A DNA stretch of 64,000 nucleotides, from contig NZ_FWFT01000002.1 in assembly GCF_900172275.1 (NCBI RefSeq), forward strand, positions 124,001-188,000. Direction: 5' to 3'. Positions 2,473 to 60,155 of the stretch are shown here, in pieces. Made by a program: the position numbers and the translations under genes. Source of the stretch: Pseudooctadecabacter jejudonensis. Lineage in GTDB: Bacteria; Pseudomonadota; Alphaproteobacteria; Rhodobacterales; Rhodobacteraceae. The notes under the pieces were generated by a model that worked only from the letters and a program-made list of their open reading frames with translations, was not told where the DNA came from and ran no database searches. The stretch's first letter is position 1. The number at the start of each line of letters is the position of its first letter.

Positions 2473-2504
2473 AAAAAGGCCCGCCTGCGAACAGACGGGC
2501 CTTT
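2473..2504 (-). terminator. Rho-independent terminator after rplQ
   Basis: Minus-strand stem AAAGGCCCGTCTG / CAGGCGGGCCTTT with a TTCG tetraloop, followed by a T run. It ends the rplO-to-rplQ block 21 bases past the rplQ stop. Confidence 0.85.
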
Positions 2505-2524
2505 CTACGAATGAAATCAGACGT

Positions 2525-2941
2525 TTATTCAGCGGCTTCTTCGGCTGCAACGCGGGCTTTGTCAGCGGCACCTTTGGCATCCACGTCGCGATCGACGAAT
2601 TCGATGATCGCCATTGGGGCCATGTCGCCATACCGGAAACCGGCCTTCATGATGCGGACATAGCCACCCTGACGTTCAGCATAACGGGGGCCGAGGACGT
2701 CGAACAATTTCGCGACATACTGGTCTTGTTTGAGCTGGGACGCGGCCTGACGGCGGGCGTGCAGATCGCCGCGTTTGGCCAGCGTGATCATCTTTTCGAT
2801 GATCGGACGCAGTTCTTTTGCCTTGGGCAACGTTGTTTTGATTTGCTCATGTTCGATGAGCGAGCCGGCCATGTTGGCCCACAATGCCTTGCGGTGTTCG
2901 TGGGTGCGGTTCAGGCGGCGGTAACCTCGTGCGTGACGCAT
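2525..2941 (-). CDS. rplQ: 50S ribosomal protein L17
   Basis: A 138-residue L17 beginning [20 protein letters not shown], the invariant opening of the family. Its Ala/Glu-rich tail ([16 protein letters not shown]) is slightly longer than in E. coli L17. L17 binds 23S rRNA near the exit tunnel. It is the last gene of the rplO-secY-adk-rpsM-rpsK-rpoA-rplQ block. A 155-base spacer with the GTATGG array separates it from rpoA, unusually long for this pair. Confidence 0.97.
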
Positions 2942-3039
2942 TTTGTAGTCTCCATTTTGTTTTAGGGTGGGCCTTGGCGATGCGTGTCGCGGGCTCCGTT
3001 ATTGGGGCGGAATTGCCCAGGGTTTTGCCGAAATCGGCG

Positions 3040-3089
3040 GTATGGCTTGCGTATGGCAAGCGTATGGCTGGCGTATGGCTACGCCAGCC
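3040..3089. repeat. GTATGG array with exact 11-base period, plus hairpin
   Basis: GTATGG starts at 3040, 3051, 3062 and 3073, four copies spaced exactly 11 bases apart (mostly GCGTATGGC). The last copy lies in a perfect 10-base-pair hairpin (3066-3075 with 3080-3089, loop TGGC), and the second in a smaller one (GCTTGC / GCAAGC). The array lies just past the rpoA stop. A second array with the same unit and period is at 55999-56048. Confidence 0.85.
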
Positions 3090-3096
3090 ACATAGG

Positions 3097-4113
3097 TTAG
3101 AAGCTGTCTTCGAACTTCTTGGCCAAATCTTCGATATTGTCTGGCGGCCAGTCTTCGACGTCCATGCCAAGGTGCAGACCCATGCCGGACAGAACCTCTT
3201 TGATCTCGTTCAGGGACTTGCGGCCAAAGTTCGGCGTGCGCAGCATTTCTGCTTCGGTCTTCTGGATGAGATCGCCGATGTAGACGATATTGTCGTTCTT
3301 GAGGCAGTTTGCAGAGCGGACAGACAATTCCAACTCGTCCACTTTCTTCAGCAGCAGCGGGTTGAATTCCAGACCGTCGTCGTCCGAGGACGCCTGTGCG
3401 GATTCTGGTTCGTCGAAGTTCACGAAGATCGACAGCTGGTCCTGCAGGATGCGCGCGGCAAAGGCCACGGCGTCATCCGGCGTGATAGATCCGTCTGTTT
3501 CGACCTTCATGGTCAGTTTGTCATAGTCGAGAACCTGACCTTCGCGGGTCGGCTGCACGTCATAGCTGACTTTTTTGACGGGGGAATAAATCGCGTCGAT
3601 GGCCATCATGCCGATGGGCGCATCTTCGGGCTTATTCTTGTCGGCAGAGACGTAGCCTTTGCCCGTGTTGACCGTCAGTTCCATGTAGAGATCTGCACCT
3701 TCGTCGAGGTGACAGATCACGTGGTCTTTGTTCAGCACTTCGATGCCTGCGGATTCGGAGATGTCGCCAGCGGTGACAACGCCTGGACCCTTCGCCTGCA
3801 CCTGCAGACGCTTGGGGCCTTCGACTTCCATGCGGATCGCGACGCCTTTGAGGTTCAACACCACGTCAGTGACGTCTTCGCGCACACCTGAGATGGAGGA
3901 GAATTCGTGCAGGACGTTGTCGATCTGAACGGCTGTGATGGCAGCGCCCTGAAGGGAGCTCATCAGGATGCGGCGCAGGGCGTTGCCCAGCGTGAGGCCG
4001 AAGCCACGTTCAAGCGGTTCGGCAATGACTGTGGCCTGACGCATCGGGTCATTGCCCGGTTTGACGTCAAGTTGTGTTGGCTTGATCAGTTCAGCCCAGT
4101 TCTTGTGGATCAT
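3097..4113 (-). CDS. rpoA: DNA-directed RNA polymerase subunit alpha
   Basis: A 338-residue alpha subunit. The N-terminal dimerisation domain has the conserved [20 protein letters not shown]. The C-terminal domain (about 260-330) contains [19 protein letters not shown] and [16 protein letters not shown], the DNA- and activator-binding face. An in-frame ATG exists at 4125, but the start at 4113 is preferred because GGAGGG lies four bases before it and [12 protein letters not shown] is the usual alphaproteobacterial opening. It assembles beta and beta' (rpoB and rpoC, about 45 kb away here) into core polymerase. Confidence 0.97.
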
Positions 4114-4181
4114 GTGTCCCTCCATTCCTGTTTGCCTTCATGTCCAAAAAGGCAAACGCCCGAGGTTGAAAATGACGAAAT

Positions 4182-4206
4182 GGGGCCACGGAACATCCGT
4201 AGCCCC
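4182..4206 (-). other. Intercistronic hairpin between rpsK and rpoA
   Basis: An 11-base-pair stem with one mismatch (GGGGC.ACGGA / TCCGT.GCCCC) and a three-base loop. On the minus strand it is followed by ATTTCGTCATTTTC, only weakly T-rich, so it could be a partial terminator or a processing/stability element. Confidence 0.55.
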
Positions 4207-4225
4207 AAGGGGTATTTTGTGTCGC

Positions 4226-4618
4226 TTAGACGCGGCGGCGCTTTGGTGGGCGGCAGCCGTTGTGGGCCATGGGCGTCACGTCACGGATCGACGTGATGTT
4301 GAAGCCGACAGCAGCCAAGGCGCGCAGTGCGGATTCACGGCCGGAACCGGGGCCCTGCACTTCGACCTCAAGCGTTTTAACGCCATGTTCCTGAGCCTTC
4401 TTGCCCGCATCCTCAGCGGCCATCTGGGCCGCGTAAGGTGTGGATTTCCGGGAACCTTTGAAGCCCATGGTGCCAGCAGACGACCAGGAGATCGCGTTGC
4501 CCTGCACGTCAGAGATCAGGATTTTGGTGTTGTTGAAGCTGGAATTTACGTGTGCAACGCCAGCTGCGATGTTCTTGGAGACCTTCTTCTTGCCTCCGCG
4601 ACGGGGATCACGTGCCAT
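4226..4618 (-). CDS. rpsK: 30S ribosomal protein S11
   Basis: A 130-residue S11 with the conserved core [34 protein letters not shown] and C-terminal [12 protein letters not shown]11 lies in the 30S platform and contacts S18 and S21. It sits 15 bases after rpsM, in the usual alpha-operon order rpsM-rpsK-rpoA-rplQ, but rpsD, present in enterobacterial versions, is absent. Confidence 0.97.
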
Positions 4619-4633
4619 TGGTCGTACCCTCCC

Positions 4634-5002
4634 TTATTTCTTCTTACCGGCAATGGCCTTCGCGGGGCCTTTGCGGGTGCGTGCGTTGGTGGAGGTCCGC
4701 TGACCGCGAACGGGCAGGTTCCGGCGATGACGCAGGCCACGGTAGGACCCGAGGTCCATCATGCGCTTGATGTTCATCGTGACTTCGCGACGCAGGTCGC
4801 CTTCGACGGTGTAGTTTTCGTCGATGTGTTCACGGATTTTCAGGACTTCAGCGTCGGACAGTTCGTTCACACGACGGGTGTGATCGATGCCTACGGCGTC
4901 GCAGATGGCGACGGCGGAGGTGTTGCCGATACCGGTGATGTAGGTGAGGGCGATTGGAACCCGCTTTGCAGTCGGGATGTTTACGCCGGCAATACGTGCC
5001 AC
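4634..5002 (-). CDS. rpsM: 30S ribosomal protein S13
   Basis: A 122-residue S13. The start is a GTG at 5002 (protein reads [16 protein letters not shown]), chosen because AAGGA lies upstream and S13 proteins begin here; the frame stays open further upstream without homology. Signatures are ALTYITGIG and the C-terminal [25 protein letters not shown]13 forms intersubunit bridges at the head of the 30S subunit. A hairpin at 5024-5043 precedes its ribosome-binding site. Confidence 0.96.
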
Positions 5003-5172: not shown

Positions 5173-5400
5173 TCAAGCCTTTGCTGTGCCGTTGTCTTTC
5201 GGTCGGCCTTCCAGCCGTTTCAATTGACGTATGGTCTGGCGGATCCAGACCGACATCCCAAGTGCTGCGAACGACAGTATGACGAAAGTCTGGGGGGCCA
5301 TCCGCAACATCGTGAGTGTCAAAAACAGAAGCAATACACAGGCAAATGCCGCCGCCAATCTGGCGAGCGGCACGGCAACGGGTTGGACATTATGCGTCAA
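5173..5400 (-). CDS. Small two-helix membrane protein next to adk, unknown function
   Basis: About 75 residues if translation starts at the TTG at 5400, which overlaps the last codons of adk. The frame is open to 5448, and a GTG further in is also possible. Two hydrophobic stretches are evident ([21 protein letters not shown] and [16 protein letters not shown]), followed by a basic tail ([18 protein letters not shown]). The overlap with adk suggests coupled translation. No family was recognised and the start is uncertain. Confidence 0.55.
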
Positions 5401-5974
5401 GAACGCCTGCGATATCCGCCGCGACCTGGTCCATCGTGCCCAGACCATCCACAGACTTCAGATCGCCTTTGGCATGGTAGTAGCCAATGAGCGGGGAGGT
5501 CTGTTTGTAATAAGCCATCAGACGGACCTTGAGGCTTTCGGCGTTGTCGTCGGCCCGCGCTATGCCGCCTGCGGCGACAGCTTCGGCCGCGCGGCCAAGG
5601 ATACGATCCACCAGAACTTCGTCGTTCACTTCGAGAGCGATGACGTGATCAAGGGTGTTGCCGGTCTCGGCCAGCAGATCGCCCAAGGCGTCGGCCTGGG
5701 CCAGCGTGCGGGGGAAGCCGTCGAAGATGAAGCCGCCGTGGTCGCCGCCTGCCTCAAGCTTTTCGCGGATCAGGCCGATCACGATCTCGTCGGTGACCAG
5801 ATCGCCGCGGTCCATGACAGCAGCAACCATTTTGCCCATTTCCGTGCCGGAGGTCTTGGCCTCACGCAGCATGTCGCCGGTGCTCAGCTGAACCATATTG
5901 CGAGCATCTACGAGTTTGGCGGCTTGCGTGCCTTTGCCCGCTCCGGGTGGTCCGAGAAGGATAATATTGGTCAT
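5390..5974 (-). CDS. adk: Adenylate kinase (short form)
   Basis: A 194-residue nucleoside monophosphate kinase. The P-loop [10 protein letters not shown] is at residues 8-17, the AMP-binding segment STGDMLR at about 31-37, and [13 protein letters not shown] at about 84-96. After GRAAEA the LID is very short, without the Cys-rich or long LID of E. coli-type enzymes. It converts ATP plus AMP to two ADP in the cytoplasm. It lies in the secY-adk order common in bacteria; its ATG overlaps the secY TGA (ATGA), so translation is coupled. Confidence 0.95.
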
Positions 5975-7329
5975 CGACGAGACGGGCTCCGTTTCTTGCC
6001 ACCGCGCTTACCGCGCAGCTGGGATTTCTCGATCAGCCCTTCGTATTGATGAGCCAGAAGATGGGATTGGATCTGCTGGATGGTATCCATCCCGACGCTG
6101 ACGATAATCAAAACCGACGTGCCGCCAAAGTAAAAAGGAATGCTGAGGTTCGCGCGGAGGATTTCCGGCAACAGGCAGACCAGAGCCAGATAGGCAGACC
6201 CGAGGACAAGGATACGTGTGACCACGTAATCAAGATATTCCTTGGTGCGCTGACCGGGGCGGATGCCGGGGACAAAGCCGTTCTGGTTTTTCAGGTTGTC
6301 GGCCACTTCGTCCGTCTTAAACGCCACTTCGCGGGTGTAGAAGAAGGTGAAGAACACGATCATCGCCGTGAAGAAGATCAGGTACAGCGGTTGACCGGGC
6401 CCGAAGTAGGCCAGGATCGTGGACATGATCGGCCCAGCGGTGTCACCGCCCGAAAACGTGCTGAGCGTGGTGGGCAGCAACAGCAGCGCAGAGGCGAAGA
6501 TCGCGGGGATCACGCCGGCGGGGTTCACTTTGATCGGCAAGTGGGACGAGCCACCGTCAAAGACCTTCATGCCGACCTGACGGCGCGGGTACTGAATGTG
6601 GATCTTACGCAAGGAGCGTTCCATGAAGACCACAAAGGCGAAGACCGCGATGACCATGGCGAAGACGCCCAGCACCAGACCCCAGTTGTTGGTTTCCTGA
6701 CCCTGGGCCAGGAAGCCCGCGAGGGCGGCGGGAACTTCGGCGATGATACCGACGAAGATGATCAGAGAGATGCCGTTGCCGATGCCGCGTGCGGTGATCT
6801 GTTCCCCCAGCCACATCAGGAACATGGTGCCACCCACCAACGTAATCACGCAGGCCAGGCGGAAATAGAGGCCGGGGTCAGTCGCCAAATCGCCCGCCTC
6901 AAGCGAGGCGGCCATGCCGTACGCCTGGAAGGTGGCCAGCACCACGGTGCCGTAACGGGTGTATTGATTGAGCTTTTTGCGGCCCTGTTCACCCTCTTTT
7001 TTCAACTGCTTGAGAGGTTCCCACATGGCCCCCAGAAGCTGCACGATGATCGAGGCAGAGATATAGGGCATGATGCCAAGGGCAAAAATACCCATCCGGC
7101 CAAGCGCGCCACCGGTGAACATCGACAAGATGCCCCCGATGCCAGAGGCCGCTTCGTCCATGAAGGCGCGCAGGGCGTCGGTGTCGATGCCGGGCACCGG
7201 AATATAGGTGCCCAAACGGTAGACGATCAGAAGGCCGAGGGTGAAAAAGATCCGCTGACGCAATTCTTTGGCCTGGCCAAAGGCCGACCAACTTGTGTTC
7301 GCGGCCATTTGCTCTGCTGCTGATGCCAT
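5971..7329 (-). CDS. secY: Preprotein translocase subunit SecY
   Basis: A 452-residue polytopic membrane protein with ten predicted helices, forming the protein-conducting channel with SecE and SecG. Recognisable parts are [11 protein letters not shown] in the first loop, [15 protein letters not shown] (helix 2), [22 protein letters not shown] (helix 4/5 region, quoted in part) and [11 protein letters not shown] in the cytoplasmic loop before helix 9. The ATG at 7329 has an AGG eight bases upstream. An internal ATG seven codons later is possible. secE is not in this window. Confidence 0.96.
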
Positions 7330-7356
7330 ATCGGGTGCCTATATCTGTTATGCAAA

Positions 7357-7423
7357 CGCCGCTGGCCGGGGATCCAGCAGCGGCGCTTTATCCATGAAAC
7401 GATGTAAGGGGCGAAGCCGCCCC
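7357..7423 (-). other. Two hairpins between rplO and secY
   Basis: CGCCGCTG (7357-7364) pairs perfectly with CAGCGGCG (7378-7385) across 13 bases. GGGGCG (7408-7413) pairs with CGCCCC (7418-7423) around a four-base loop. On the minus strand neither is followed by a clear T run, so processing or partial attenuation is likelier than full termination. Confidence 0.5.
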
Positions 7424-7433
7424 CCACAAGTCG

Positions 7434-7907
7434 TTATTCAGCGGCTGGCGCGGCTGTGACCGTCAGTTTACCGCCCGCTTTTTCGACAGCTTCGACGGCG
7501 CCTTTGGACGCGCCGGTGACTTCGATCGTTGCTTTTGCCGTCAATTCACCCTTGGCGAGGACGCGCACACCGTCGAGTTTACGACGCAGCGCGCCGGACG
7601 CGACAAGGCTGTCTTCGGTGATGGACCCAGCGTCGAGCTTTTTGGCGTCGATGAATTTCTGGATCAGGCCGAGGTTGATCACGGCGTATTTTTTACGGTT
7701 GGGCTTGTTGAAACCGCGCTTAGGCAGGCGCTGGTAGAGGGGCATCTGGCCGCCTTCGTAGCCACCAATGGCCACACCGGAGCGGGATTTCTGACCTTTG
7801 ATACCACGGCCACCCATCTTACCCATGCCAGAGCCTGGACCACGGCCCACGCGTTTCTTTGGCTTGGTTGCACCTGGGTTGTCGTGCAGTTCGTTCAATT
7901 TAACCAT
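7434..7907 (-). CDS. rplO: 50S ribosomal protein L15
   Basis: A 157-residue L15 beginning [20 protein letters not shown]. It has the Gly-rich N-terminal segment ([20 protein letters not shown]) and the [17 protein letters not shown] motif, and ends in an Ala-rich tail. L15 is a late-assembling 23S rRNA binder. Here it is the first gene of a transcript of its own: rpmD, its usual neighbour, is 3.1 kb away beyond ilvA, a pilin-like gene and an acyltransferase. Confidence 0.96.
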
Positions 7908-7999
7908 GTCGCTGTCTCCTTGCCGGAAGACCTGACCCAGCGAAGATCAGGCACGCGGCGTTGATGTTGATTCTTATGGCCCACGCGGACCACTGGCGG

Positions 8000-8028
8000 C
8001 GTATAGGACAGCCGCGCGGGGCTGACAA
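8000..8028 (-). promoter_or_regulatory. Promoter of the rplO-secY-adk-rpsM-rpsK-rpoA-rplQ block
   Basis: Minus strand TTGTCA (8028-8023), 17 bases, TATACG (8005-8000). The leader to the rplO ATG is about 85 bases. The same arrangement, with TATACG after a C-rich spacer end, is found before rpmC. Confidence 0.65.
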
Positions 8029-8122
8029 GGGGTTTGGGCCGCCCCCGCTGCCCCTTTGGGGGCCGCGTCCTTACCCTATCCGCGCCCCGATTTGGCCCGA
8101 TTGCCGTGATACGCCGTGGCGC

Positions 8123-9268
8123 ATGACCCACACAGACGCCCTGCCCCGCCACTTTACCTGCATTGACGCCATGCGCGGCATTGCCGCGATTTTCGTCGTG
8201 ATGTTTCACGCAACGCGCTTTTTTCAGGATCAGGCGGGCGTGCATGTGGTGCCGGTGGCCCCTGAAGACATGCCGTATGGCGCGTGGCTGTGGCCTGCGT
8301 TTGTTTATGGCGAAGAGGCTGTCCGGTTGTTCTGGGTGATTTCGGGGTTTGTTTTTGCCCATGTGTATTGGAACCGCCCCACCACCGCGCGCGAGTTTGC
8401 TGTGGCGCGGTTTGCGCGGCTGTATCCGCTGCATTTTGTGACGCTGATTTTGGTGGCGGGGATGCAGATGATCAGCCTGCAGACACAGGGGCACTGGCAG
8501 ATCACCGGCAACAACGATCTCAAACACTTTGTGCTGCAGCTGTTCCTTTTGGACAGCAGTTTGGCCCTGTCCGACGGGGTGAGTTTCAACGCGCCGATCT
8601 GGTCGGTGTCGGCTGAGATTTTCGTTTATGTGCTGTTCTTCCTGTGTCTGCCATTGACCCGCCGCGCGCCCCTGAAGGGATCGCTGATTTTGGCGATGCT
8701 GTGTTACGGCGTTTTGGTCATCAGGCCTGATGGGTTTCTGATCGGGCCTTGGGTCTTTGCCTGCGGCGTGTTCTTTTTCGCCGGTGCGGCATGCTATGCT
8801 GGCTATGTTGGCCTGCGCGGGGCGGTGCGGCCCTTGGCCGTCAGTGTGGCGGGCCTGATTGGGGCGACGGTCATTGCGGGTCTTTTGGGGTTGCATGACG
8901 TGGCACTTTTGGTGGGATGCTGCGCCATCGTGATGGCTTTGGCCGCGATGGAACGCAGCGTGCAGGCGCGGCGCGGTGTGCGGGGCGGTATGCTGCAGTT
9001 TTTGGGCGACATCAGCTACAGTCTTTATCTGGTGCATATGCCGATCCAGATCCTCGTGGTGCTGATCATTGATCTGTATTTTGGCGGCGGACGGGACTTT
9101 GCCGCGTCATACCTGACGTTGCCGCTGTTCATCGCGGGCAGCATTTGGGTCGCCTATCTGACGAACCGGTATTTTGAGAAACCAGTGGGGGCGTGGCTGC
9201 GCGGCAAAATGCAAAAACGCCGCACACCGGTGGGTGGCGACGTTAAAGGCGTTTCGGTCGGAACGTGA
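8123..9268 (+). CDS. Acyltransferase 3 (OafA/YrhL-type) membrane protein
   Basis: A 381-residue integral membrane acyltransferase with about ten helices. The N-terminal IDAMRGIAAIFVVMFHATRF carries the family's conserved R-G and the essential His of helix 1. Then come FWVISGFVFAHVYW and RFARLYPLHFVTL (the R-x-x-R-x-x-P signature), and late in the protein GDISYSLYLVHMP. These enzymes transfer acyl groups, often acetyl, to exported glycans. The ATG at 8123 was chosen because homology begins at FTCIDAMRG; no strong Shine-Dalgarno precedes it. It is the only plus-strand gene in the rpmD-rplO insertion, and its TGA abuts the stop of the next gene. Confidence 0.88.
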   Translation: MTHTDALPRHFTCIDAMRGIAAIFVVMFHATRFFQDQAGVHVVPVAPEDMPYGAWLWPAFVYGEEAVRLFWVISGFVFAHVYWNRPTTAREFAVARFARLYPLHFVTLILVAGMQMISLQTQGHWQITGNNDLKHFVLQLFLLDSSLALSDGVSFNAPIWSVSAEIFVYVLFFLCLPLTRRAPLKGSLILAMLCYGVLVIRPDGFLIGPWVFACGVFFFAGAACYAGYVGLRGAVRPLAVSVAGLIGATVIAGLLGLHDVALLVGCCAIVMALAAMERSVQARRGVRGGMLQFLGDISYSLYLVHMPIQILVVLIIDLYFGGGRDFAASYLTLPLFIAGSIWVAYLTNRYFEKPVGAWLRGKMQKRRTPVGGDVKGVSVGT

Positions 9269-9541
9269 TCAGCGGCTAGAGCACGCGGCCTCGGCTGCGG
9301 CCAAACGGGCCTGCAGTTCGCGGGGGTTGCCTTCCATAATGGCGGCAATGTCGGTCACAAGGCAGTCTTCCACCGCTTCGGCGAGGTTATTGGCCCCAAG
9401 CGCCACATCACGGGCATGGGCCGCACCCAACATCATGACAGACGCGGTTAGAACCACGAAATCCGTGGTCACTGCGCCATCCTCATCGGCGCGAAACGCC
9501 TTGAGATGGGCTGCGATTTTGGTCTGCAGGGCAGATGGCAT
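9269..9541 (-). CDS. Small Flp/pilin-like single-helix protein, unknown function
   Basis: A 90-residue protein with a charged N-terminus, then EDGAVTTDFVVLTASVMMLGAA and a polar C-terminal half with two Cys residues (EDCLV, AACSSR). The acidic patch, Gly-Ala-Val-Thr and hydrophobic helix resemble small Flp-type pilin or pseudopilin proteins of Rhodobacteraceae, but no peptidase site could be fixed and no tad genes are nearby. Its stop codon directly abuts the convergent acyltransferase stop. Confidence 0.6.
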   Translation of the reverse strand: MPSALQTKIAAHLKAFRADEDGAVTTDFVVLTASVMMLGAAHARDVALGANNLAEAVEDCLVTDIAAIMEGNPRELQARLAAAEAACSSR

Positions 9542-9622
9542 GATCTTCGTCCAATCCTCGGTTCAGGTTTGAACAAGGTAAACGACGATTGTGGCAAAAA
9601 TTTGGGGCGATCTGGCCGTGAT

Positions 9623-10837: not shown

Positions 10838-10891
10838 GTGATCACCGTGGCGACCGATGATCGTGGACGCAATGATATTTGTGGTCGGGGG

Positions 10892-10937
10892 CAAATTCTC
10901 ATTGAGAATTTGAGTGCAGACTTTCGTAGAAAGTCTG
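10892..10937. repeat. Tandem double hairpin with three-base loops (copy A)
   Basis: CAAATTCTC-ATT-GAGAATTTG (10892-10912), then CAGACTTTC-GTA-GAAAGTCTG (10917-10937). Both stems are perfect, nine base pairs each. The second hairpin is closely related to the one at 51416-51438. It lies between the rpmD terminator and ilvA. Confidence 0.75.
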
Positions 10938-10945: not shown

Positions 10946-10978
10946 GAAAAACGCCCCACCGTTTCCGGCGGGGCGTTC
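10946..10978 (-). terminator. Terminator of the rpmC-to-rpmD block
   Basis: Minus strand GAACGCCCCGCC / GGTGGGGCGTT with a six-base loop, then a T run. It lies 26 bases past the rpmD stop and separates the ribosomal block from ilvA. Confidence 0.85.
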
Positions 10979-11003: not shown

Positions 11004-11192
11004 TTAGCCCTTTTCTTCGATGATCTCGACCATGTGGGGGATGCTTTCGACCATGCCGCGCACGGAAGGTGTGTCTTCCAATTCGCGGGTTTTGTGCATC
11101 TTGTTCAGGCCCAGACCGATCAGCGTTGCACGCTGTTTGGCGGGGCGACGGATCGGAGAGCCGATCTGTTTTACGACGATGGTTTTTGCCAT
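11004..11192 (-). CDS. rpmD: 50S ribosomal protein L30
   Basis: A 62-residue L30 ([20 protein letters not shown], then [20 protein letters not shown]). It follows rpsE by three bases, as in most bacteria, but is the last gene before a terminator; rplO, which normally follows directly, has been separated. Confidence 0.96.
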
Positions 11193-51463: not shown

Positions 51464-54400
51464 TTACTCATCATCCTCCGCATCCAGGAGTTCCATGTTG
51501 AGGCCTAGCCCGCGGACTTCTTTCACAAGAACGTTGAACGATTCTGGCACGCCAGCCTCGAAGTTGTCCTCGCCCTTGACGATGCTTTCATAGACCTTCG
51601 TCCGGCCTGCCACGTCGTCCGATTTCACCGTCAGCATTTCCTGCAAGGTGTAGGCGGCGCCGTAAGCTTCGAGTGCCCAGACTTCCATCTCACCGAAGCG
51701 CTGACCACCGAACTGCGCCTTACCACCCAGCGGCTGCTGCGTGACGAGGGAGTACGGCCCCGTAGAACGGGCGTGGATCTTGTCGTCGACCAAGTGGTGC
51801 AGTTTCAGCAGGTATTTGATGCCCACTGTCACAGGCCGTGCGAACTGTTCACCGGTGCGCCCGTCGAACAGGATCGACTGACCGGATTCAGAGAACCCAG
51901 CACGTTTGAGCGCATCGTTGACGTCGGCCTCAACTGCGCCGTCAAAGACGGGCGTTGCGATTGGCACACCGCGGGTCACGTTGCCTGCGGCCTCGACCAG
52001 TTGGCCTTCGTCCATGCCTTCGATGCCTTCTTCGTAGACATTGTCACCATAGGCGATCTTCATGGCGTCGCGGACAGGTGTCAGATCACCGGACCGGCGG
52101 TATTCGCCAAGGGCTTCGTCGATGTGCAGGCCCAGACCGCGTGCGGCCCAACCCATGTGCGTCTCAAGGATCTGACCGACGTTCATACGCGATGGCACGC
52201 CGAGCGGGTTCAGAACGAAGTCGACTGGCGTACCGTCTGCGAGGAACGGCATGTCCTCCATCGGGACAACCTTGGAAATGACACCCTTGTTGCCGTGACG
52301 ACCGGCCATTTTGTCACCGGGCTGCAGCTTACGCTTCACCGCCACAAAGACTTTGACCATTTTCATCACGCCCGGGGGCAGATCGTCGCCGCGGCGCACT
52401 TTCTCGACCTTGTCTTCGAACCGTGCGTCGAGCAGTTTTTTCTGCGCTTCGTACTGTTCGTTCAGGGCTTCGACGATTTGTGCGTCGCCTTCTTCCTTCA
52501 GCGCTAGCTGCCACCAGTGGCTGCGGGGCATATCGTCCAGCAGGGCCGCGTCGATGGTCGTGCCAGCCTTGATGCCTTTGGGGCCTTTGGCGACGGTTTT
52601 GCCTTCGATCATGGTGCGCAAACGGGCGTAGATGTTGCGATCAAGGATCGTCATCTCGTCGTCGCGGTCACGGGCGAGGCGTTCGACCTCTTCCCGTTCG
52701 ATCTGCAGGGCACGTTCGTCTTTTTCGACACCGTGGCGGTTGAAGACGCGAACCTCAACAACTGTCCCGAAGTCGCCGGGTGGCAGACGCAGGGAGGTGT
52801 CGCGAACGTCGGAGGCTTTCTCACCGAAGATGGCGCGAAGGAGTTTCTCCTCTGGCGTCATCGGGCTTTCGCCTTTTGGCGTGATCTTACCGACCAGGAT
52901 ATCCGCAGGGCCAACCTCTGCACCGATATAGACGATGCCCGCTTCGTCAAGGTTGCGCAGAGCTTCCTCACCGACGTTGGGGATGTCGCGGGTGATTTCC
53001 TCTGGCCCAAGCTTGGTGTCACGGGCGGCGACTTCGAATTCCTCAATGTGGATAGAGGTGAAGACGTCGTCGCGCACGATACGCTCGGAGATCAGAATGG
53101 AATCTTCGTAGTTGTAGCCGTTCCACGGCATAAACGCGACGACGACGTTCTTGCCGAGCGCCAGTTCACCGATATCCGTGGAGGGGCCGTCTGCGATGAC
53201 CTCACCTTTGCCGACTGTGTCGCCCACCTTCACCAGCGGACGCTGGTTGATGCAGGTGTTCTGGTTGGAGCGCTGGAACTTGCGCATACGGTAGATGTCA
53301 ACGCCGGGGTCGCCGACCTCAAGGTCGGACGTGGCGCGCACAACGATACGTGTGGCGTCGACCTGGTCGATGATCCCGCCGCGCTTGGCCATGATCGCCG
53401 CACCGGAGTCGCGGGCAACCACTTCTTCGATACCTGTACCAACCAAGGGTGCCTCAGCCTGCAACAAAGGCACAGCCTGACGTTGCATGTTCGAGCCCAT
53501 CAGGGCGCGGTTCGCGTCGTCGTTCTCAAGGAACGGGATCAGCGAGGCCGCGACGGAGACCAACTGCTTGGGCGAGACGTCGATCAGGTCCACGTTGCCC
53601 GTGGGGGCCAGCGTGTATTCACCGTTTTGACGGGTGTTGACCATTTCGTTGGTGAAGACGTTGTTTTCATCCAAGGACGCGTTGGCCTGCGCCACCGTGT
53701 GACGCATTTCTTCGGTCGCAGACATGTAGGACACTTCGTCTGTGACCTTGCCGTCGACAACCTTGCGGTATGGCGTTTCGATGAAGCCGTATTTGTTCAC
53801 GCGGGCAAAGGTCGCCAGCGAGTTGATCAGACCAATGTTTGGCCCTTCCGGCGTTTCAATCGGGCACATGCGGCCATAGTGGGTCGGGTGCACGTCGCGG
53901 ACCTCAAAGCCGGCACGTTCGCGGGTCAGACCGCCTGGCCCCAGTGCGGACAGACGACGCTTGTGCGTGACTTCCGACAGCGGGTTGGTTTGGTCCATGA
54001 ACTGCGACAGCTGCGAAGAGCCGAAGAATTCGCGCACGGCAGCGGCAGCAGGTTTCGCGTTGATGAGATCCTGCGGCATGACCGTATCGATTTCAACCGA
54101 GGACATACGTTCTTTGATCGCACGTTCCATCCGCAGAAGGCCAACGCGATACTGGTTTTCCATCAGCTCACCCACGGAGCGGACACGACGGTTGCCGAGG
54201 TGGTCGATGTCGTCCACATCGCCCTTGCCATCGCGCAATTCAACCAGCGCCTTGATACAGGATACGATATCTTCACGGCGCAGGGTGCGCAGCGTGTCTT
54301 CGGCCTCAAGTGCGAGGCGCATGTTCATTTTCACACGGCCCACGGCAGACAGGTCATACCGCTCGGCGTCGAAGAACAAGCTGTCGAACAGGGTCGATGC

Positions 54401-55603
54401 GGCGTCAACGGTGGGCGGCTCGCCCGGGCGCATCACACGGTAGATGTCCATCAGCGCGGTTTCGCGGGACATGTTTTTGTCCGACGCCATGGTGTTGCGC
54501 ATGTAGGGGCCGACATTGATGTTATCGATGTCGAGGACAGGAATGGTGGTGACGCCAGCATCCACCAGCTCCTTCAGGGAGCCGCCGATGACTTCGCCAT
54601 CTTTGTCCATTTCCAACGTCAACTCATCCCCGGCTTCGACGTAGATCGCACCGGTTTCTTCGTTGATGATGTCGAGGGCGGCAAATTTGCCAACGATCTG
54701 TTCGTAAGGCACGAGAAGTTCGGTCACTTCGCCTTCGTCGATCAGCTTTTTGACCGCGCGGGGCGTCATTTTCTTGCCCGCTTCACCGATCACTTCACCA
54801 GATTTGGCATCGACCAGATCGAACGTCGGGCGGGTGCCGCGCACACGTTCGGGGAAGAACTTGGTTTTCCAGCCCTTCGCCTTCTTGTCGTAGGTGTAAT
54901 CGACAGTGTCATAATAGGCGTTCATGATCGCTTCTTGATCGAGGCCCAGCGCGTACAGCAGTGTTGTCACTGGCAGCTTACGGCGACGGTCGATGCGCGC
55001 GAACACAAGGTCTTTGGCGTCGAATTCAAAGTCGAGCCACGACCCGCGATACGGAATGATCCGGCAGGCGAACAGCAGCTTGCCCGAGCTGTGCGTTTTG
55101 CCTTTGTCGTGGTCAAAGAACACACCAGGAGAGCGGTGCATCTGGGACACGATCACGCGTTCCGTTCCGTTCACAACAAAGGTGCCGTTCGGTGTCATCA
55201 GGGGCATATCGCCCATGAACACGTCTTGTTCCTTGATGTCCTTCACGGACTTCGCGCCCGTGTCTTCGTCGACATCAAACACGATCAGACGGAGGGTGAC
55301 CTTTAGCGGCGCGGAATAGGTCATGTCGCGCTGCTGACATTCCTCAACGTCGTACTTTGGCTTTTCAAGCTCGTACTTCACGAATTCCAGAATGGAGGTT
55401 TCGTTGAAATCCTTGATCGGGAAGACCGACTGGAACACACCCTTGATCCCTTCGCCGTCCAGCGGCGTGTCGCTGTCGCCGGAGCGCAGGAACAGATCAT
55501 AGGAGGATTTCTGAACCTCAATGAGGTTCGGCATATCAAGCACTTCGTTGATTTTGCCATAATATTTACGGAGACGTTTCTGACCGAGGAACGTTTGCGC
55601 CAT
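51464..55603 (-). CDS. rpoB: DNA-directed RNA polymerase subunit beta
   Basis: 1379 residues. The rifampicin region is wild type ([40 protein letters not shown]). Further motifs: [54 protein letters not shown] and, at the end, [20 protein letters not shown]. Start at 55603 ([20 protein letters not shown]) is family-typical. rplL, its usual upstream neighbour, is 3.3 kb away. Confidence 0.97.
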
Positions 55604-55845
55604 GTGTCTGAAAACCTTTCAAATTTTCTCAACGGTGCAGGGCAGTTGGGCGACTGACCTGCGGCCATACGAGACAGCAAAAAGGGGGTCCATTCTCGCC
55701 GCGCGACCCAAAGCGCGGCCCTCGACCCCAAATCTACCTTGGAAAACACCCCGCAGGGCCCTTACCAAGACAGAGCGCAATATTTTGCCTTCCCCTTGAA
55801 AACGTTAAGTTTTTCGAAGGGTGTGTCGGCTCCATATTGCAAGAC
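55604..55845 (-). other. rpoB leader region
   Basis: No gene is supported. It contains GCCGCGC / GCGCGGC (55699-55719 area) and an A+T-rich stretch with AAAAC / GTTTT inverted segments near 55798-55813. The promoter of rpoB-rpoC should lie here, but only a weak candidate (TTAACG, 17 bases, AAATAT) was seen. Confidence 0.4.
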
Positions 55846-56065: not shown

Positions 56066-57955
56066 TCAGAAGAAAATGGACAATCCCACCAGAGAGACCA
56101 CCAAAAACAGGATCGTCATGATCCCGCCGGATCGCACAAAATCCACCACGCGGTAGCCGGCAGGCCCCATGATCAGCGCGTTGACCTGATGGGTGGGGAT
56201 CAGAAAGGAATTCGAGGTTGAGATCGCAACCGTCAGCGCAAAAATCGCCGGATCGCCGCCCGCCTCGAACGCGATGGAGACGGCAAGCGGAACCAAAAGG
56301 ACAGTGGCGCCCACATTCGACATCACCAGCGTGAACGCCGTGGCAAGAACCGCAAGACCAGCCTGCAGCGCCCAAAGCGGCCAGCCGTCCAGCAACGTCA
56401 GGATTTGTCCGGCAATCCATGCCGCCGTGCCAGTGTTCTGCACCGCCTGCCCCAGCGGGATGAGGGACGCGAGAAGGAAAACGGTGCTCCAACTCACGGC
56501 GTCATAAGCCTCATCAATGCTGAGAACGCGCGACAGGATCATGCCCAGCGCGCCTGCCAGCAGACACAGGGACAACAACAGATCGGTGAACAGGATCAGG
56601 CCCAACGTCATCGCAAAAAACCCAAGGGCCCAGTTCACCTTGTTGGGGCGCAACTCCTCTTGCGGGAAATCGGAGGTCACGACGACATAATCGCGGTCTT
56701 GTTTCAGGCGGGTGAGCTTTTCCCAGCGCACGTGTACGACCAACGTATCGCCCGCCTGTAGGGGCACCGCGCCGATATGGGTGGCGACGTGGTCTTCGGT
56801 TTCCACATGGCTGAGCGTGTCCTCCCCGCGGTGGATCGCCAAAATCGACAGCCCGTGTTTGGACCGCAGACGCAGATCAATCGGGCTTTGGCCGATGACA
56901 GAGGACCCAGGTGGGATCACCACCTCCGCCACGCCGGATTCCGTGGCCGCGAAATCATCGGCAAAGATATCGAGGGCTGGCAGAATTTTGACGTTGTAGG
57001 GTGTGCAAAATTCATCCTCCAACGCGCGGCGCAGGCCCAGAACAGCCAAACGGCACGGGGCCTCAATCACGGTGTCGGCCATGGGCGCGATGACCTTGTG
57101 ACCCTTGTAGGATGTGCCGAGGATGTAAAGGTGGTGCGCCACCATGACGTCGGACAGGGTTTGGCCGATGAGAATGGACCCCTCCGGCACGCTGAGTTCA
57201 AACATATCCGCGCGCAGGCCGTAGGTGTTTTCGATGTAGTCCTGCATGGACCGCGCGGCACCGGCGTCCTCCCCCCTACCCCGCTGGCCGGGCAGGATCC
57301 AGCGGCCCAGCAACACGAAATACAGGACCCCCGTCAGCACCAACATGATGCCGATGGGGGTCACCGAAAACAGCCCAAAGGGTTCCATTTGTTGGCCCGC
57401 AGGCAACATGTCATTGGCCGTCGCCAACAGATCATTCAGAAGGATCAGGGGCGATGAGCCGACCATTGTGATCGTGCCGCCAAGAATGGCGCAAAAGCCC
57501 ATGGGCATGGCAAGGCGCGACATGGGAATTTCGGTGCGCGCTGAAATGCGGCTGATCACGGGCAAAAACAGCGCCGCGGCGCCGACGTTTTGCATAAAGG
57601 ATGAGATGACGCCGACGGTGCCGGACACGATGGGGATGATGCGCCCTTCGGTCGTGCCCCCGCGTTTGAGGATCAGCGCCGCGACTTTGGACATCAGACC
57701 GGTCTTGTCGAGGCCCGCGCCCACGATCATCACGGCGATGATCGAGATGACCGCGTTGGACGAAAAGCCAGCAAACAAATCGGCCCCATCAGACAGATTG
57801 CCCAAGCCCGGCACGGTGCTGAGGATCCCCAGAAGGGCCATCACCAGAAGAGCGGCAAGATCAATGCGGATGATTTCAGAGACAAACAGAAAAACGGTGA
57901 ACGCCAGCAGCCCAAGGACAACCATCATTTCGAGTGTGAGAACTGAACCGTCCAT
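56066..57955 (-). CDS. SLC13/DASS-family transporter with two TrkA-C domains
   Basis: 629 residues. About 11 membrane helices flank a cytoplasmic insert (about 215-410) with two TrkA-C-like domains (SVPEGSILIGQTLSDVMVAH and VIPPGSSVIGQSPIDLRLRS). The first helix bundle contains the SxxTxxGSSPLIL-type motif (GGTITMVGSSPLILLNDLLA) and the second VAISTSNSFLIPTHQVNALI. It is probably a Na+-coupled sulfate, citrate or similar anion symporter; regulatory nucleotide binding by the insert is inferred. GGAGG precedes the ATG. A 156-base spacer without genes separates it from the next gene. Confidence 0.88.
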   Translation of the reverse strand: MDGSVLTLEMMVVLGLLAFTVFLFVSEIIRIDLAALLVMALLGILSTVPGLGNLSDGADLFAGFSSNAVISIIAVMIVGAGLDKTGLMSKVAALILKRGGTTEGRIIPIVSGTVGVISSFMQNVGAAALFLPVISRISARTEIPMSRLAMPMGFCAILGGTITMVGSSPLILLNDLLATANDMLPAGQQMEPFGLFSVTPIGIMLVLTGVLYFVLLGRWILPGQRGRGEDAGAARSMQDYIENTYGLRADMFELSVPEGSILIGQTLSDVMVAHHLYILGTSYKGHKVIAPMADTVIEAPCRLAVLGLRRALEDEFCTPYNVKILPALDIFADDFAATESGVAEVVIPPGSSVIGQSPIDLRLRSKHGLSILAIHRGEDTLSHVETEDHVATHIGAVPLQAGDTLVVHVRWEKLTRLKQDRDYVVVTSDFPQEELRPNKVNWALGFFAMTLGLILFTDLLLSLCLLAGALGMILSRVLSIDEAYDAVSWSTVFLLASLIPLGQAVQNTGTAAWIAGQILTLLDGWPLWALQAGLAVLATAFTLVMSNVGATVLLVPLAVSIAFEAGGDPAIFALTVAISTSNSFLIPTHQVNALIMGPAGYRVVDFVRSGGIMTILFLVVSLVGLSIFF

Positions 57956-58111
57956 GTTTCCTCCATCCCGGGATGTTTAGCGCCATATGGGACGAGCGCA
58001 TAGGTCCAGTTTAAAGGTGGGGGATGGGCCAGGGGAGTGAGGATTGATGTGGCGATGGCGACGCGCACCAATGACGGCTTTCAGAGTAAATCGGAGAGCT
58101 TCAGAACCCGC

Positions 58112-58705
58112 CTAAGAAAAATCTGTGCTGCCGTCAGGAAGAATAACATATGAGAAAATCACTTCAGAAACGCTGTCGCCATGGGACTCACCTTTTACAT
58201 CGTGAATATGAATACACGCGAAGTTACCCAACACGTTTTGAAGGCAAACGATTTGGTTTTCCTTTGGTGTCACGACACGGTTAGAGAAGTCAAAAACCGT
58301 GACGTCTTTGATATCAGAAATTTGGCCGGCCCCCGTTGCCAAAGCAATGCGTGAAACATTCGCGGGATCGGAATACAAATGAATAGCCTCTCCCGAAGCA
58401 TTTGAAAATTTCAAAGTGAGTTCCGCTTCATCTTTTCCAATAAGAAATTGGCCGTTGTTTGCCTTGTATCCAAATGTGGTGCGGCCGCAGAGGCGATTGT
58501 TGACGTTTGAAGCCTGAAACGGCCAATAAATAGCGGTAAGAGTCGTTAACCCTCCAACAAAGACGACCAGTGGCTCTAAAGGGAACGACCAGTCAAGAAT
58601 TTCCACGATCCACCAAGCAAAAGACAAAACAAGAAACAGAATGGCGAGCCAAAAAAGTGCCGTTTTTTGACGACGCTGAAATCGGTAGAGAGTATTGTGC
58701 ATCAT
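58112..58705 (-). CDS. Two-helix membrane protein with a beta-rich C-terminal domain, unknown
   Basis: 197 residues. After a short basic N-terminus (RFQRRQK) come two helices, LFWLAILFLVLSFAWWIVEI and PLEPLVVFVGGLTTLTAIYW. The C-terminal 130 residues look beta-stranded and soluble (GKDEAELTLKFSNASGEAIH, VVTPKENQIVCLQNVLGNFA). The layout recalls two-helix effectors of immune systems, but no partner gene is present. Base composition is richer in A+T than the adjacent ribosomal genes. Function unknown. Confidence 0.7.
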   Translation of the reverse strand: MMHNTLYRFQRRQKTALFWLAILFLVLSFAWWIVEILDWSFPLEPLVVFVGGLTTLTAIYWPFQASNVNNRLCGRTTFGYKANNGQFLIGKDEAELTLKFSNASGEAIHLYSDPANVSRIALATGAGQISDIKDVTVFDFSNRVVTPKENQIVCLQNVLGNFACIHIHDVKGESHGDSVSEVIFSYVILPDGSTDFS

Positions 58706-58865
58706 GCCGTAGAAATAGGATGGGTTCCATCACAATAGAAGGCCTCGAAAACAATTGCCTTTGCGCTGAACAGGACTGCGAAAGCAGTTTGAGCAGAAGA
58801 CCTCTGCCAAAACAAGGTCGGGCATCGAATTCCGAAATGCAGCAAAGCCTGAAATGTTATCCCCA

Positions 58866-58902
58866 AACAAAAACGACGGCCCCTTTCGGGACCGCCGTCT
58901 TT
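58866..58902 (-). terminator. Terminator of rplJ-rplL
   Basis: Minus strand AAGACGGCGGTCCC-GAAA-GGGGCCGTCGTTTTTG: a long stem with a GAAA tetraloop and five T residues, 24 bases past the rplL stop. Confidence 0.85.
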
Positions 58903-58925
58903 GATCTTCCAAAGAAGAGCGTGGC

Positions 58926-59303
58926 TTAGGCCAGCTCGACCTCGGCGCCAGCTGCTTCCAGCTTGCCTTTGATGTCTTCGGCTTCTGCCTTGTCGACACC
59001 TTCTTTGATCTTGCCGCCAGCTTCGACGAGGTCTTTGGCTTCTTTGAGGCCCAGACCCGTGATGCCGCGAACTTCCTTGATCACGTTGATCTTGGATGCG
59101 CCAGCGTTCTTGAGAACGACGTCAAATTCTGTCTTCTCTTCTGCTGCACCGCCAGCGTCGCCGCCAGCAGGACCAGCCATCATCACAGCGCCGCCAGCTG
59201 CGGGCTCGATGTCGTACTCATCCTTGAGGATGGTTTTCAGTTCTTGTGCTTCGAGAAGTGTCAGGTTGACGATCTCTTCGGCAAGTTTCTTCAGATCAGC
59301 CAT
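58926..59303 (-). CDS. rplL: 50S ribosomal protein L7/L12
   Basis: A 125-residue stalk protein ([20 protein letters not shown]; Ala/Gly hinge; C-terminal [33 protein letters not shown]) that recruits translation factors. It follows rplJ by 68 bases. Confidence 0.97.
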
Positions 59304-59371
59304 TGTGCTTTTCCATTTCTAAATTTGTGTTCCAACGTGAGGGGTCTTCCCTACGATGGCAGTCAGATTGC

Positions 59372-59884
59372 TTACGCAGCCTTCTCTTCGATGGTCGAGA
59401 GAATGCTTGCGACGTTCGAAGCAGGCGCGCCAATGGCACCAGCGATGTTGGCAGCAGGTGCACCGATGCAACCAACGATGGAGGCGATAAGCTCCTCGCG
59501 GGATGGCATTTCGGACACGGCTTTCACACCGGCAGGGTCCAGAGCGTTCTCACCCATGGCACCGCCGAGGATCACGAGCTTGTCGTTTTCCTTGGCGTAT
59601 GTCTGAACAACCTTGGCCGCAGCCACAGGATCTTCAGAATAGGAGAGGACGGTCATGCCCGTCAGGTAATCCGCGATGCTTTCGCATGGTTTACCGTCGA
59701 GGGCGATTTTGGCGAGCTTGTTCTTGGCGACGCGCACAGAACCGCCAGCGTCGCGCATGCGACCCCGCAGATCCTGCATTTCAGCAACTGTCATGCCTTC
59801 GTAGTGGGCAACCACAACGACGCCAGAGCTTTCGAAGATTTGGCCGAGCTCTTCGACCAATTTTTCTTTCTGGGCTCTATCCAC
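59372..59884 (-). CDS. rplJ: 50S ribosomal protein L10
   Basis: A 170-residue L10 beginning at a GTG (59884), [22 protein letters not shown] lies seven bases upstream; the longer open frame has no homology. Core motif: [20 protein letters not shown]. The C-terminal helix binds L7/L12 dimers. rplK and rplA, normally directly upstream, are absent; a sensor cyclase gene is there instead. Confidence 0.96.
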
Positions 59885-60126
59885 AGTTTCACTCCAAGTT
59901 TGGGGGTTGGATGGTCCGCGCCCCGGCTCAATTCTGCCAAAGCCCCAAGGGGCCCGACGTTGTTGTCCATATTTAACGGGGGTTGAGCCGAACAAGGATG
60001 GAGCCCATGGAGAGCACCAGTCAAATTCGTTTCTTTCCCGCCTCGGGCAGGATTTATGAAGCAAGGCTTCACCCACCGTCTCGGACGATAGAACGCACCG
60101 CGAATCGCAGCCCGTTCATGGGTCGG
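59885..60126 (-). other. rplJ leader
   Basis: About 240 bases without a gene. In other bacteria L10-L7/L12 binds such a leader to repress its operon; a CCCCAAGGGGCC-type inverted segment near 59943-59953 is visible, but no full site was resolved. Confidence 0.4.
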
Positions 60127-60155
60127 TATTTAGTCGGCAATGGGACGTTTGTGAA
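60127..60155 (-). promoter_or_regulatory. Candidate promoter of rplJ-rplL
   Basis: Minus strand TTCACA (60155-60150), 17 bases, TAAATA (60132-60127). It would give a leader of about 235 bases. Confidence 0.45.

What the first reader, a model, noticed from the sequence alone, without database searches (positions are those of the whole stretch)
2473..60155. Ribosomal/RNA polymerase supercluster cut into seven blocks, most with their own promoter
Gene order and strand are conserved from rplJ to rplQ, but unrelated genes split the cluster after rplL, rpoC, tuf, rplW, rplP and rpmD. The block after each break (except rpoB, uncertain) begins with a TTG-type -35, exactly 17 bases and a TA-type -10 (44962-44990, 38921-38949, 35501-35529, 15373-15401, 8000-8028, and probably 60127-60155), and most end in a terminator. 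The C-rich spacers look alike. This suggests repeated insertion with independent or duplicated promoters keeping expression.
Basis: partly seen in the sequence, partly recalled or inferred. Interest (0 to 1): 0.72.

Follow-up and report, generated by a model that had tools for sequence, protein, structure and literature searches.

The report
Gene docking sites split ribosome operons
In this marine bacterium and much of its family the long ribosomal gene cluster is cut at a few fixed points, usually bounded by a stop signal and a restart signal for transcription, and at some of these points unrelated genes are swapped in and out almost freely.

Summary
All six breaks are real. With a 17-bp-spacer promoter profile counted without this genus, the eight best sites on both strands of the window are the starts of eight ribosomal/RNA-polymerase blocks. 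The rplJ site alone is within chance.

In 134 Rhodobacteraceae sequences, gaps over 300 bp occur at these junctions (328 of 487, adk|rpsM included) but in only 5 of 2396 gaps at 27 other junctions. Other orders are compact at the three inner points tested. So most breaks are family-wide, not peculiar to this genome.

Split junctions usually have a terminator upstream (256 of 319) and a promoter downstream (219 of 298). The promoters are not copies of one another; the type also precedes rplK, rpsO, rpmI and ffh elsewhere.

Cargo at rplW|rplB and tuf|rpsJ turns over almost completely; at rplP|rpmC an oxygenase gene persists. Fragments of the rplW 3' end in some inserts suggest capture by recombination at flanking genes. 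Boundary-before-cargo order is suggested, not proven. New variant of known kinds.

The parts
60127..60155 (-). promoter-like site of rplJ-rplL (TTCACA-17-TAAATA)
   Evidence: weakest of the eight, within the range of shuffled windows
58926..59884 (-). block rplJ-rplL (rplJ start at 59884)
58877..58894 (-). terminator-like hairpin after rplL
56066..58705 (-). insert rplL|rpoB: 197-aa ORF (no Pfam family) and CitMHS/TrkA_C transporter
55636..55728 (-). Rhodo-rpoB RNA leader (RF03074)
47128..55603 (-). block rpoB-rpoC
44998..45909 (-). insert rpoC|rpsL: EamA transporter
44962..44990 (-). promoter-like site of rpsL block (TTGACA-17-TAGAGA)
40497..44729 (-). block rpsL-rpsG-fusA-tuf
40386..40408 (-). 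terminator-like hairpin after tuf
38999..39976 (+). insert tuf|rpsJ: CBS-GGDEF protein
38921..38949 (-). promoter-like site of rpsJ block (TTGCCC-17-TAAAAG)
36700..38799 (-). block rpsJ-rplC-rplD-rplW
35962..36531 (-). insert rplW|rplB: SocA/Panacea antitoxin-domain protein, low GC3
35554..35958 (-). insert rplW|rplB: 134-aa partner ORF, no family; homologues in 8 of 295 family genomes searched, the window's own included
35501..35529 (-). promoter-like site of rplB block (TTGACC-17-TATCAG)
35347..35415 (-). L2-Alphaproteobacteria leader (RF03142)
32698..35344 (-). block rplB-rpsS-rplV-rpsC-rplP
32594..32619 (-). terminator-like hairpin after rplP
15540..32354 (.). insert rplP|rpmC: methyltransferase, 2OG-Fe(II) oxygenase, nitrate/nitrite assimilation genes, cysG
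15373..15401 (-). promoter-like site of rpmC block (TTGCCA-17-TATACG)
11004..15273 (-). block rpmC to rpmD
10952..10975 (-). terminator-like hairpin after rpmD
7961..10894 (.). insert rpmD|rplO: threonine ammonia-lyase (9623-10894, -) and acyltransferase (7961-9268, +; the ORF as listed runs over the rplO promoter site, so its true start is probably further in)
8000..8028 (-). promoter-like site of rplO block (TTGTCA-17-TATACG)
5390..7907 (-). block rplO-secY-adk
2525..5002 (-). block rpsM-rpsK-rpoA-rplQ

Best explanation
The cluster is now a row of separately transcribed units. At most unit boundaries an intrinsic terminator ends the upstream unit and a growth-type sigma-70 promoter restarts transcription: TTG-type -35, 17 bp, TA at the start of the -10 and a base other than T at -7, the type proposed in print to be helped by CarD. 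At rpoB and rplB a known RNA leader follows the promoter. These boundaries make a few junctions inside otherwise uninterrupted essential operons tolerant of foreign DNA. Cargo is then gained, stacked and replaced, probably by recombination through the conserved r-protein genes on either side. Shown: fixed break points, association with terminators and promoter-like sites, 17-bp spacing, cargo turnover at two junctions, rplW 3'-end fragments in some inserts. Inferred: promoter activity, CarD dependence, recombination as the route, and boundary before cargo.
For: Break points: 5 of 2396 gaps over 300 bp at 27 other junctions against 328 of 487 at the seven split junctions. Terminators within 150 bp: split 256 of 319, unsplit forms of the same six pairs 31 of 118, 7 of 2199 over 25 other printed junctions (summed by hand). 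Promoter profile of the other four junctions, best score over 8 within 300 bp (rpsL, rpsJ, rplB, rpmC, rplO): split 34/41, 17/18, 41/92, 83/97, 44/50, together 219 of 298; unsplit 100-300 bp 10 of 55; under 100 bp 1 of 19; shuffles of split regions 0.7-4% (sums by hand). Spacer with held-out profiles, 14-20 all allowed: 17 in 248 of 298, shuffles 34 of 196. T at -7 in 3 of 298, though the profile that picks the sites itself prefers G there. rpoB site in 4 of 4 split genomes. rpsM: score over 8 in 31 of 47, shuffles 1.7%. Cargo shared by genome pairs at 0.06-0.12 divergence: rplW|rplB 35 of 1281, tuf|rpsJ 4 of 154, control rplQ|rarA 25 of 30. rplW 3'-end fragment plus terminator before cargo in G001, G003, L011, L042, two fragments in G005. 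A CarD-domain match in a 175-aa frame is in the genome.
Against: No transcript data. The tree-aware pair tests have too few informative pairs to reach 0.05 as a rule: strict pattern, pairs for/against: rpsJ 4.4/0, rplB 1.5/1.2 (no support), rpmC 1.7/0.3, rplO 1.4/0; loose: 3.0/0, 3.6/0.6, 2.3/0, 2.3/0. Counts treat related genomes as independent. At rplB only 41 of 92 split junctions reach score 8 with profiles of other junctions. The loose TTG-TA pattern is weak evidence: shuffles reach 17-62%. adk|rpsM, split in 8 of 47, has a terminator in 1 of 8 split and 5 of 37 unsplit. rplP|rpmC and rpoC|rpsL keep a common cargo gene and are not fast-exchange sites. Only one control boundary outside the cluster was measured. 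rplW fragments are rare (5 of 92 inserts, one of these a weak 52-bp match) and only some are nearer to another species. Some unsplit rplW|rplB junctions have a terminator but no visible promoter.
Confidence: 0.63

Rival explanations
1. Insertion first, rescue later: foreign genes broke read-through transcription, and selection then built promoters and terminators at each wound.
For: Good promoter sites are rare at unsplit junctions: 1 of 19 under 100 bp, 10 of 55 at 100-300 bp. At rplL|rpoB terminators are in 4 of 4 split and 0 of 5 unsplit genomes, and promoter sites in 4 of 4 split, with one poor pattern hit (16-bp spacer) among 5 unsplit. G127 and G092 show isolated insertions in otherwise mostly compact basal lineages.
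Against: Terminator-promoter pairs without any gene at rplP|rpmC in G121 (score 14.2), G021 (13.4), L025 (9.8) and G086 (8.0), more doubtfully G107 (5.6); G121 lies outside the clade that is split there. Promoters without a gene also at rplO in G087, L014, L025, L072 and G099. Terminators are already in 31 of 112 unsplit forms of tuf|rpsJ, rplW|rplB, rplP|rpmC and rpmD|rplO, against 7 of 2199 elsewhere. Most of these genomes are nested among split ones, so loss of cargo could also have left empty boundaries.
Confidence: 0.35
2. Integrative elements with their attachment site in the 3' end of rplW cause the hot spot.
For: Inserts in five sequences hold a copy of the rplW 3' end, with a terminator, somewhat as an att repeat would look.
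Against: No integrase was seen to recur: in 90 cargo proteins of the named loci no Pfam family is in more than 3, and two transposase-type hits are among the 25 of 71 families shown (the other 46 were not shown). Fragments differ from the full copy (80-97% identical over 60 bp) and are absent from most inserts; other junctions show few or none.
Confidence: 0.1
3. Ordinary operon fission: once units are separate, genes land between them as between any two operons; nothing special about these junctions.
For: Insertions between operons of this cluster are known in Gammaproteobacteria and Bacilli (PMC8046335, passages read). rpoC|rpsL, rplP|rpmC and the control rplQ|rarA keep common cargo.
Against: rplW|rplB and tuf|rpsJ share cargo in 3% of pairs where the control shares 83% (25 of 30 pairs).
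Confidence: 0.35

Closest known systems
[quoted passage not shown]
   Same: Small groups of unrelated genes inserted in the same gene cluster, also at rpoBC|str and str|S10.
   Different: Examples in the passages read lie between operons or just after rplL; here three lasting breaks lie inside S10 and spc as these operons are usually drawn (recalled): rplW|rplB, rplP|rpmC, rpmD|rplO, with terminator-promoter boundaries and, at rplW|rplB, fast cargo turnover.
Hot spots of horizontal gene transfer flanked by core genes (PMC5635113)
   Same: Fixed position between core genes, diverse cargo, often no mobile element, recombination at the flanks proposed.
   Different: [quoted passage not shown] here the spots sit inside ribosomal operons, made tolerant by boundaries. 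The per-species definition used there was not applied.
-7A/C/G sigma-70 promoters of Alphaproteobacteria, proposed CarD targets (PMC8407463)
   Same: No T at -7, in front of essential genes; TTG -35 and TA in the -10.
   Different: Here inferred by comparison only; spacer nearly always 17 and C-rich.
L2-Alphaproteobacteria leader (RF03142) and Rhodo-rpoB RNA (RF03074)
   Same: Rfam matches above the gathering score before rplB and rpoB.
   Different: No difference found; known elements that here sit just inside two of the boundaries.

Membership tests
-7A/C/G sigma-70 promoter class | base other than T at -7 of the -10 element | tested here: met
   8 of 8 sites in the window; T in 3 of 298 family sites, picked by profiles that prefer G there
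-7A/C/G sigma-70 promoter class | transcription start at the expected distance | not testable with these tools
   no 5'-end data; the one paper search for such maps listed 8 of 57 papers, none on this family
-7A/C/G sigma-70 promoter class | CarD present and activating | tested here: inconclusive
   CarD-domain match in a 175-aa frame (the domain family also holds transcription-repair proteins); activation not testable
core-flanked hot spot of gene transfer | same core genes flank different genes in different genomes | tested here: met
   rplW|rplB: 172 ORF families in 84 genomes with inserts, none in 10% of them (ORF calling is crude); pair sharing 59 of 3240
core-flanked hot spot of gene transfer | raised homologous recombination in flanking core genes | not tested
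   only indirect: rplW 3'-end fragments
integrative element at a gene 3' end | integrase gene in the insert | tested here: inconclusive
   none recurs in what was shown: 25 of 71 families shown; G006 has transposases
L2-Alphaproteobacteria leader | covariance model match over gathering score | tested here: met
   53.5 bits, cut-off 37.8
Rhodo-rpoB RNA | covariance model match over gathering score | tested here: met
   59.5 bits, cut-off 33.6
Panacea toxin-antitoxin pair | SocA/Panacea domain antitoxin | tested here: met
   75.4 bits, cut-off 25.7
Panacea toxin-antitoxin pair | adjacent recognisable toxin | tested here: inconclusive
   134-aa neighbour 3 bases away matches no Pfam or PADLOC family

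The most novel reading that the evidence does not exclude
Boundary modules (terminator, then a -7G promoter, sometimes an RNA leader) arose first inside the S10, spc and rpoBC operons within the Rhodobacteraceae and turned these junctions into permanent docking sites, where cargo, including defence modules, is exchanged between species through the highly conserved ribosomal genes on both sides.
Probability: 0.4. Interest if true: 0.72.

Novelty: new variant of a known kind. Interest (0 to 1): 0.56.

Why it matters
Ribosomal operons are the textbook case of frozen gene order. A family in which a few internal junctions became exchange sites, while 25 of 27 other junctions of the cluster were never seen with a gap over 300 bp, gives a natural experiment on what makes an operon interior tolerant of insertion. 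It also points to where strain-specific genes, some of defence type, can be found in marine Rhodobacteraceae.

Tried and rejected
Promoter duplication: rejected, since flanks do not match and the type is genome-wide. Generic sigma-70 scan: not usable here. Defence island at rplW|rplB for the whole family: not supported; of 90 cargo proteins few match PADLOC, and the 25 of 33 families shown are mainly one CBASS-type cyclase; within Octadecabacter several inserts do look defence-like. Integrase-driven insertion: not supported by what was shown. The mismatched-genome control for gene-end copies is not informative, because any rplW end finds the same fragment; the reversed control gave 0. Four hits of that scan are false: tuf copies 24-26 kb into a wrongly joined interval are second tuf genes. 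A literature look found no description of these breaks in Rhodobacteraceae in the listings seen: searches (open-licence papers only; most listings were capped).
Full report
What the window is. It is G000:C6:124001-188000 of a 3.4-Mb genome in a genus that includes Octadecabacter: same-genus genome G016 has the contig length (76577) of L011, titled Octadecabacter dasysiphoniae, and G017 has rplB at the same contig position (190-1029) as L026, Octadecabacter sp.. From high to low coordinates, all on the minus strand, it holds rplJ-rplL, rpoB-rpoC, rpsL-rpsG-fusA-tuf, rpsJ-rplC-rplD-rplW, rplB-rpsS-rplV-rpsC-rplP, rpmC to rpmD, rplO-secY-adk and rpsM-rpsK-rpoA-rplQ (most ribosomal genes named by eye and by their matches in relatives, rpoA and rpsM by NCBIfam). 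The inserts are a CitMHS transporter and a 197-aa ORF; an EamA transporter; a CBS-GGDEF protein on the other strand; a SocA/Panacea-domain protein with a 134-aa neighbour; 17 kb with a 2OG oxygenase, a methyltransferase and nitrate/nitrite assimilation genes; and threonine ammonia-lyase with an acyltransferase.

Promoters. I counted a profile on split junctions of the family, leaving out the genus, and scanned both strands of the window with spacer 17: the eight best sites are the starts of the eight blocks, scores 8.4-15.5, next best 7.5; five shuffled windows had maxima of 7.3, 8.2, 8.7, 8.8 and 9.5. The rplJ site (8.4) is therefore not significant by itself; a TTCACA-17-TA site recurs 253-273 bases upstream in 4 of 9 genomes. 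Two sites are new: rpoB, ahead of its Rhodo-rpoB leader, and rpsM (47 genomes examined, best spacer 17 in 32; score over 8 in 31, shuffles 1.7%).

Family comparison. I compared the window, 53 genomes of the family and the 80 named loci nearest by rplB (134 in all; the named and unnamed sets may overlap by a few organisms, and the named set leans to close relatives). Gaps over 300 bp: rpoC|rpsL 41 of 42, rplP|rpmC 97 of 110, rplW|rplB 92 of 120, rpmD|rplO 50 of 69, rplL|rpoB 4 of 9, tuf|rpsJ 36 of 90, adk|rpsM 8 of 47. The other 27 junctions: 5 of 2396, all at rpoB|rpoC (3 of 27) and fusA|tuf (2 of 57). Pairs on different strands or out of order are not in these counts: 4 at rplP|rpmC, 5 at fusA|tuf. 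rpsQ|rplN, the S10/spc boundary as usually drawn (recalled), is never split (0 of 111).

Outside the family. From the coordinates I worked out by hand: rplW|rplB at most 71 bp in 21 of 21 genomes of other orders that had both genes; rplB to rplN 2.2-2.5 kb in 18 of 19 measurable; rplN to secY 3.7-4.5 kb in 20 of 21. The exception in both is G053, a 0.6-Mb genome. So the three inner breaks are derived in Rhodobacteraceae. rpoC|rpsL is different: it is 2.4 kb in outgroup G045 too, so that break may be older.

Tree. A FastTree of 128 sequences from 19 ribosomal proteins puts G094, G118, G127, G022, G019, G107, G092 and G121 at the base, mostly compact, then a clade of 118 mostly split at rplP|rpmC (exceptions G021, G071, G086, G096, L025, L027), and inside it 112 mostly split at rplW|rplB and rpmD|rplO too. 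Fewest changes of state: tuf|rpsJ 17, rplW|rplB 14, rpmD|rplO 9, rplP|rpmC 8. The independent-pairs tests of split state against promoter pattern have too few informative pairs; for rplB with the strict pattern they give no support.

Boundary anatomy. Terminators within 150 bp of the upstream gene: split 4/4, 33/41, 32/36, 71/91, 78/97, 38/50 (rplL, rpoC, tuf, rplW, rplP, rpmD); unsplit forms 0/5, 0/1, 9/54, 12/27, 6/13, 4/18; 25 other printed junctions 7 of 2199. Left out of that last sum: adk|rpsM (1/8 split, 5/37 unsplit), the end of the cluster rplQ|rarA (18/24, 10/15), fusA|tuf split (0/2), and junctions with 30 or fewer genomes, which were not printed. In the window the hairpins after rpoC and rplW failed that strict scan but fold stably. 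Promoters by the profile of the other four junctions, score over 8: split rpsL 34/41, rpsJ 17/18, rplB 41/92, rpmC 83/97, rplO 44/50; unsplit 100-300 bp 0/1, 1/12, 1/19, 3/8, 5/15; under 100 bp rpsJ 0/1, rplB 0/9, rpmC 0/5, rplO 1/4; shuffles of the split regions 0.7-4%. The strict pattern gives 40/41, 14/18, 69/92, 76/97, 17/50 in split junctions, shuffles 10-13%. With held-out profiles and spacers 14-20 all allowed, 248 of 298 best sites have 17 (shuffles 34 of 196), and T stands at -7 in 3 of 298, with the reservation that the profiles prefer G there. rplB is the least uniform (58 of 92 with 17). Published passages describe -7A/C/G promoters as over-represented before essential alphaproteobacterial genes and propose CarD as activator (PMC8407463, passages).

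Not duplicated, but a genome-wide type. Between seven blocks of the window (rpsM not included), flanks are on average 29% identical, spacers 38%, hexamers 68%. A strict pattern with up to one mismatch finds 13 places in the genome (the backward control finds 10, so number alone proves nothing), but 11 of the 13 stand within 200 bases before the start of a core gene: four of this cluster, rplK-rplA, rpsO, rpmI-rplT, ffh, pyrB, mreB and an inositol-monophosphatase-like gene (names by eye from the sequences, not from a family search).

Cargo. For inserts over 500 bp and genome pairs at 0.06-0.12 protein divergence, homologous cargo at the same junction is shared by 35 of 1281 at rplW|rplB, 4 of 154 at tuf|rpsJ, 46 of 208 at rpmD|rplO, 66 of 78 at rpoC|rpsL, 1349 of 1465 at rplP|rpmC and 25 of 30 at the control rplQ|rarA. 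Closer pairs (under 0.06): 9 of 56 at rplW|rplB, 2 of 10 at tuf|rpsJ. rplP|rpmC is held by the 2OG gene, in 75 of 97. In the genus the rplW|rplB cargo looks different in each species examined: Panacea pair (window), DUF5343 plus HEPN candidate defence pair (G001), HNH protein (G003), CBASS-type cyclase (L011), transposases and a HEPN protein (G006), and unassigned ORFs in G005, G008, G009, G013, G015. The nitrate genes occur elsewhere in congeners: full-length nirB of 79-96% identity in 11 of 18 other genomes, and a unit of the same order in G010, with no ribosomal gene in the 20 kb read.

Footprints. Inserts of G001, G003, L011 and L042 hold a second copy of the rplW 3' end followed by a terminator, ahead of the cargo next to rplB; G005 has two, the second with stop codons inside. 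Over the last 60 bases the L011 fragment matches the window at 90% and its own rplW at 80%; the G003 fragment matches G008 at 93% and its own at 88%; G005's second matches G001 at 97% and its own at 90%; the G001 fragment and G005's first are nearest their own, and L042 is tied. I read these as scars of cargo taken from the same junction of another strain; the differences are only 3 to 6 bases, so this is an inference. G016 is the same contig as L011 and not counted apart. Some of the Octadecabacter fragments may descend from one event.

Order of events. At rplP|rpmC, G121, G021, L025 and G086 have a terminator and a promoter (scores 14.2, 13.4, 9.8, 8.0) but no gene; G107 has a terminator and a weak site (5.6). 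G121 and G107 lie outside the clade split there. Empty junctions with promoters also occur at rplO: G087, L014, L025, L072, G099. At rplW|rplB the L2 leader is present in unsplit G129, G150, G086, L025, L066 and L075, several with a terminator after rplW, while loci of G019, G107, G118, G121 and G061 gave no leader match. This favours boundary before cargo but could also follow from loss of cargo. How rplB is transcribed where a terminator but no promoter is visible is unexplained.

Judgement. Observation confirmed. Novelty: breaks of this cluster and core-flanked hot spots are known separately (PMC8046335 and PMC5635113, passages read); their combination inside ribosomal operons, with regular boundary modules, was not met in the listings of my ten paper searches.

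Noticed in passing
G000:C6:190892 (about 2.9 kb beyond the window's right end) and window 60195-63820: rplK-rplA has a promoter of the same type beyond the window (one mismatch), and a GGDEF/PilJ protein and a cytidylyltransferase/LicD-like protein stand next to rplJ in the stretch towards it, so rplA|rplJ seems to be a further break.
   Followed up: partly
window 35554-36531: SocA/Panacea-domain gene followed 3 bases on by a 134-aa ORF of no known family, found in only 8 of 295 family genomes searched, own included: a candidate toxin-antitoxin pair.
   Followed up: partly
L011:4573-5451, G001 and G003 at rplW|rplB: Different defence-like genes (CBASS-type cyclase, PDC-M34 pair, HNH protein weakly like a type IV restriction enzyme) sit at the same junction in congeners.
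   Followed up: partly
G129, G150, G138, G021 at rplW|rplB: Unsplit junctions with a terminator-like hairpin after rplW but no convincing promoter before rplB; possibly attenuation ahead of the L2 leader.
   Followed up: no
G014, G027, G069, L030 at rplP|rpmC: In these four the two sides of the junction lie on different strands or out of order, so rearrangements seem to have an end at this same junction.
   Followed up: no
window 18427-32354 and L231: Nitrate/nitrite assimilation unit inside the ribosomal cluster; the same gene order in G010, with mosaic identity (nirB, nrtB about 96%, nasA, cysG about 74-80%).
   Followed up: partly
window 5173-5448: A 91-aa frame between adk and rpsM overlaps the rpsM promoter site and matches no NCBIfam model; probably not a gene.
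   Followed up: no
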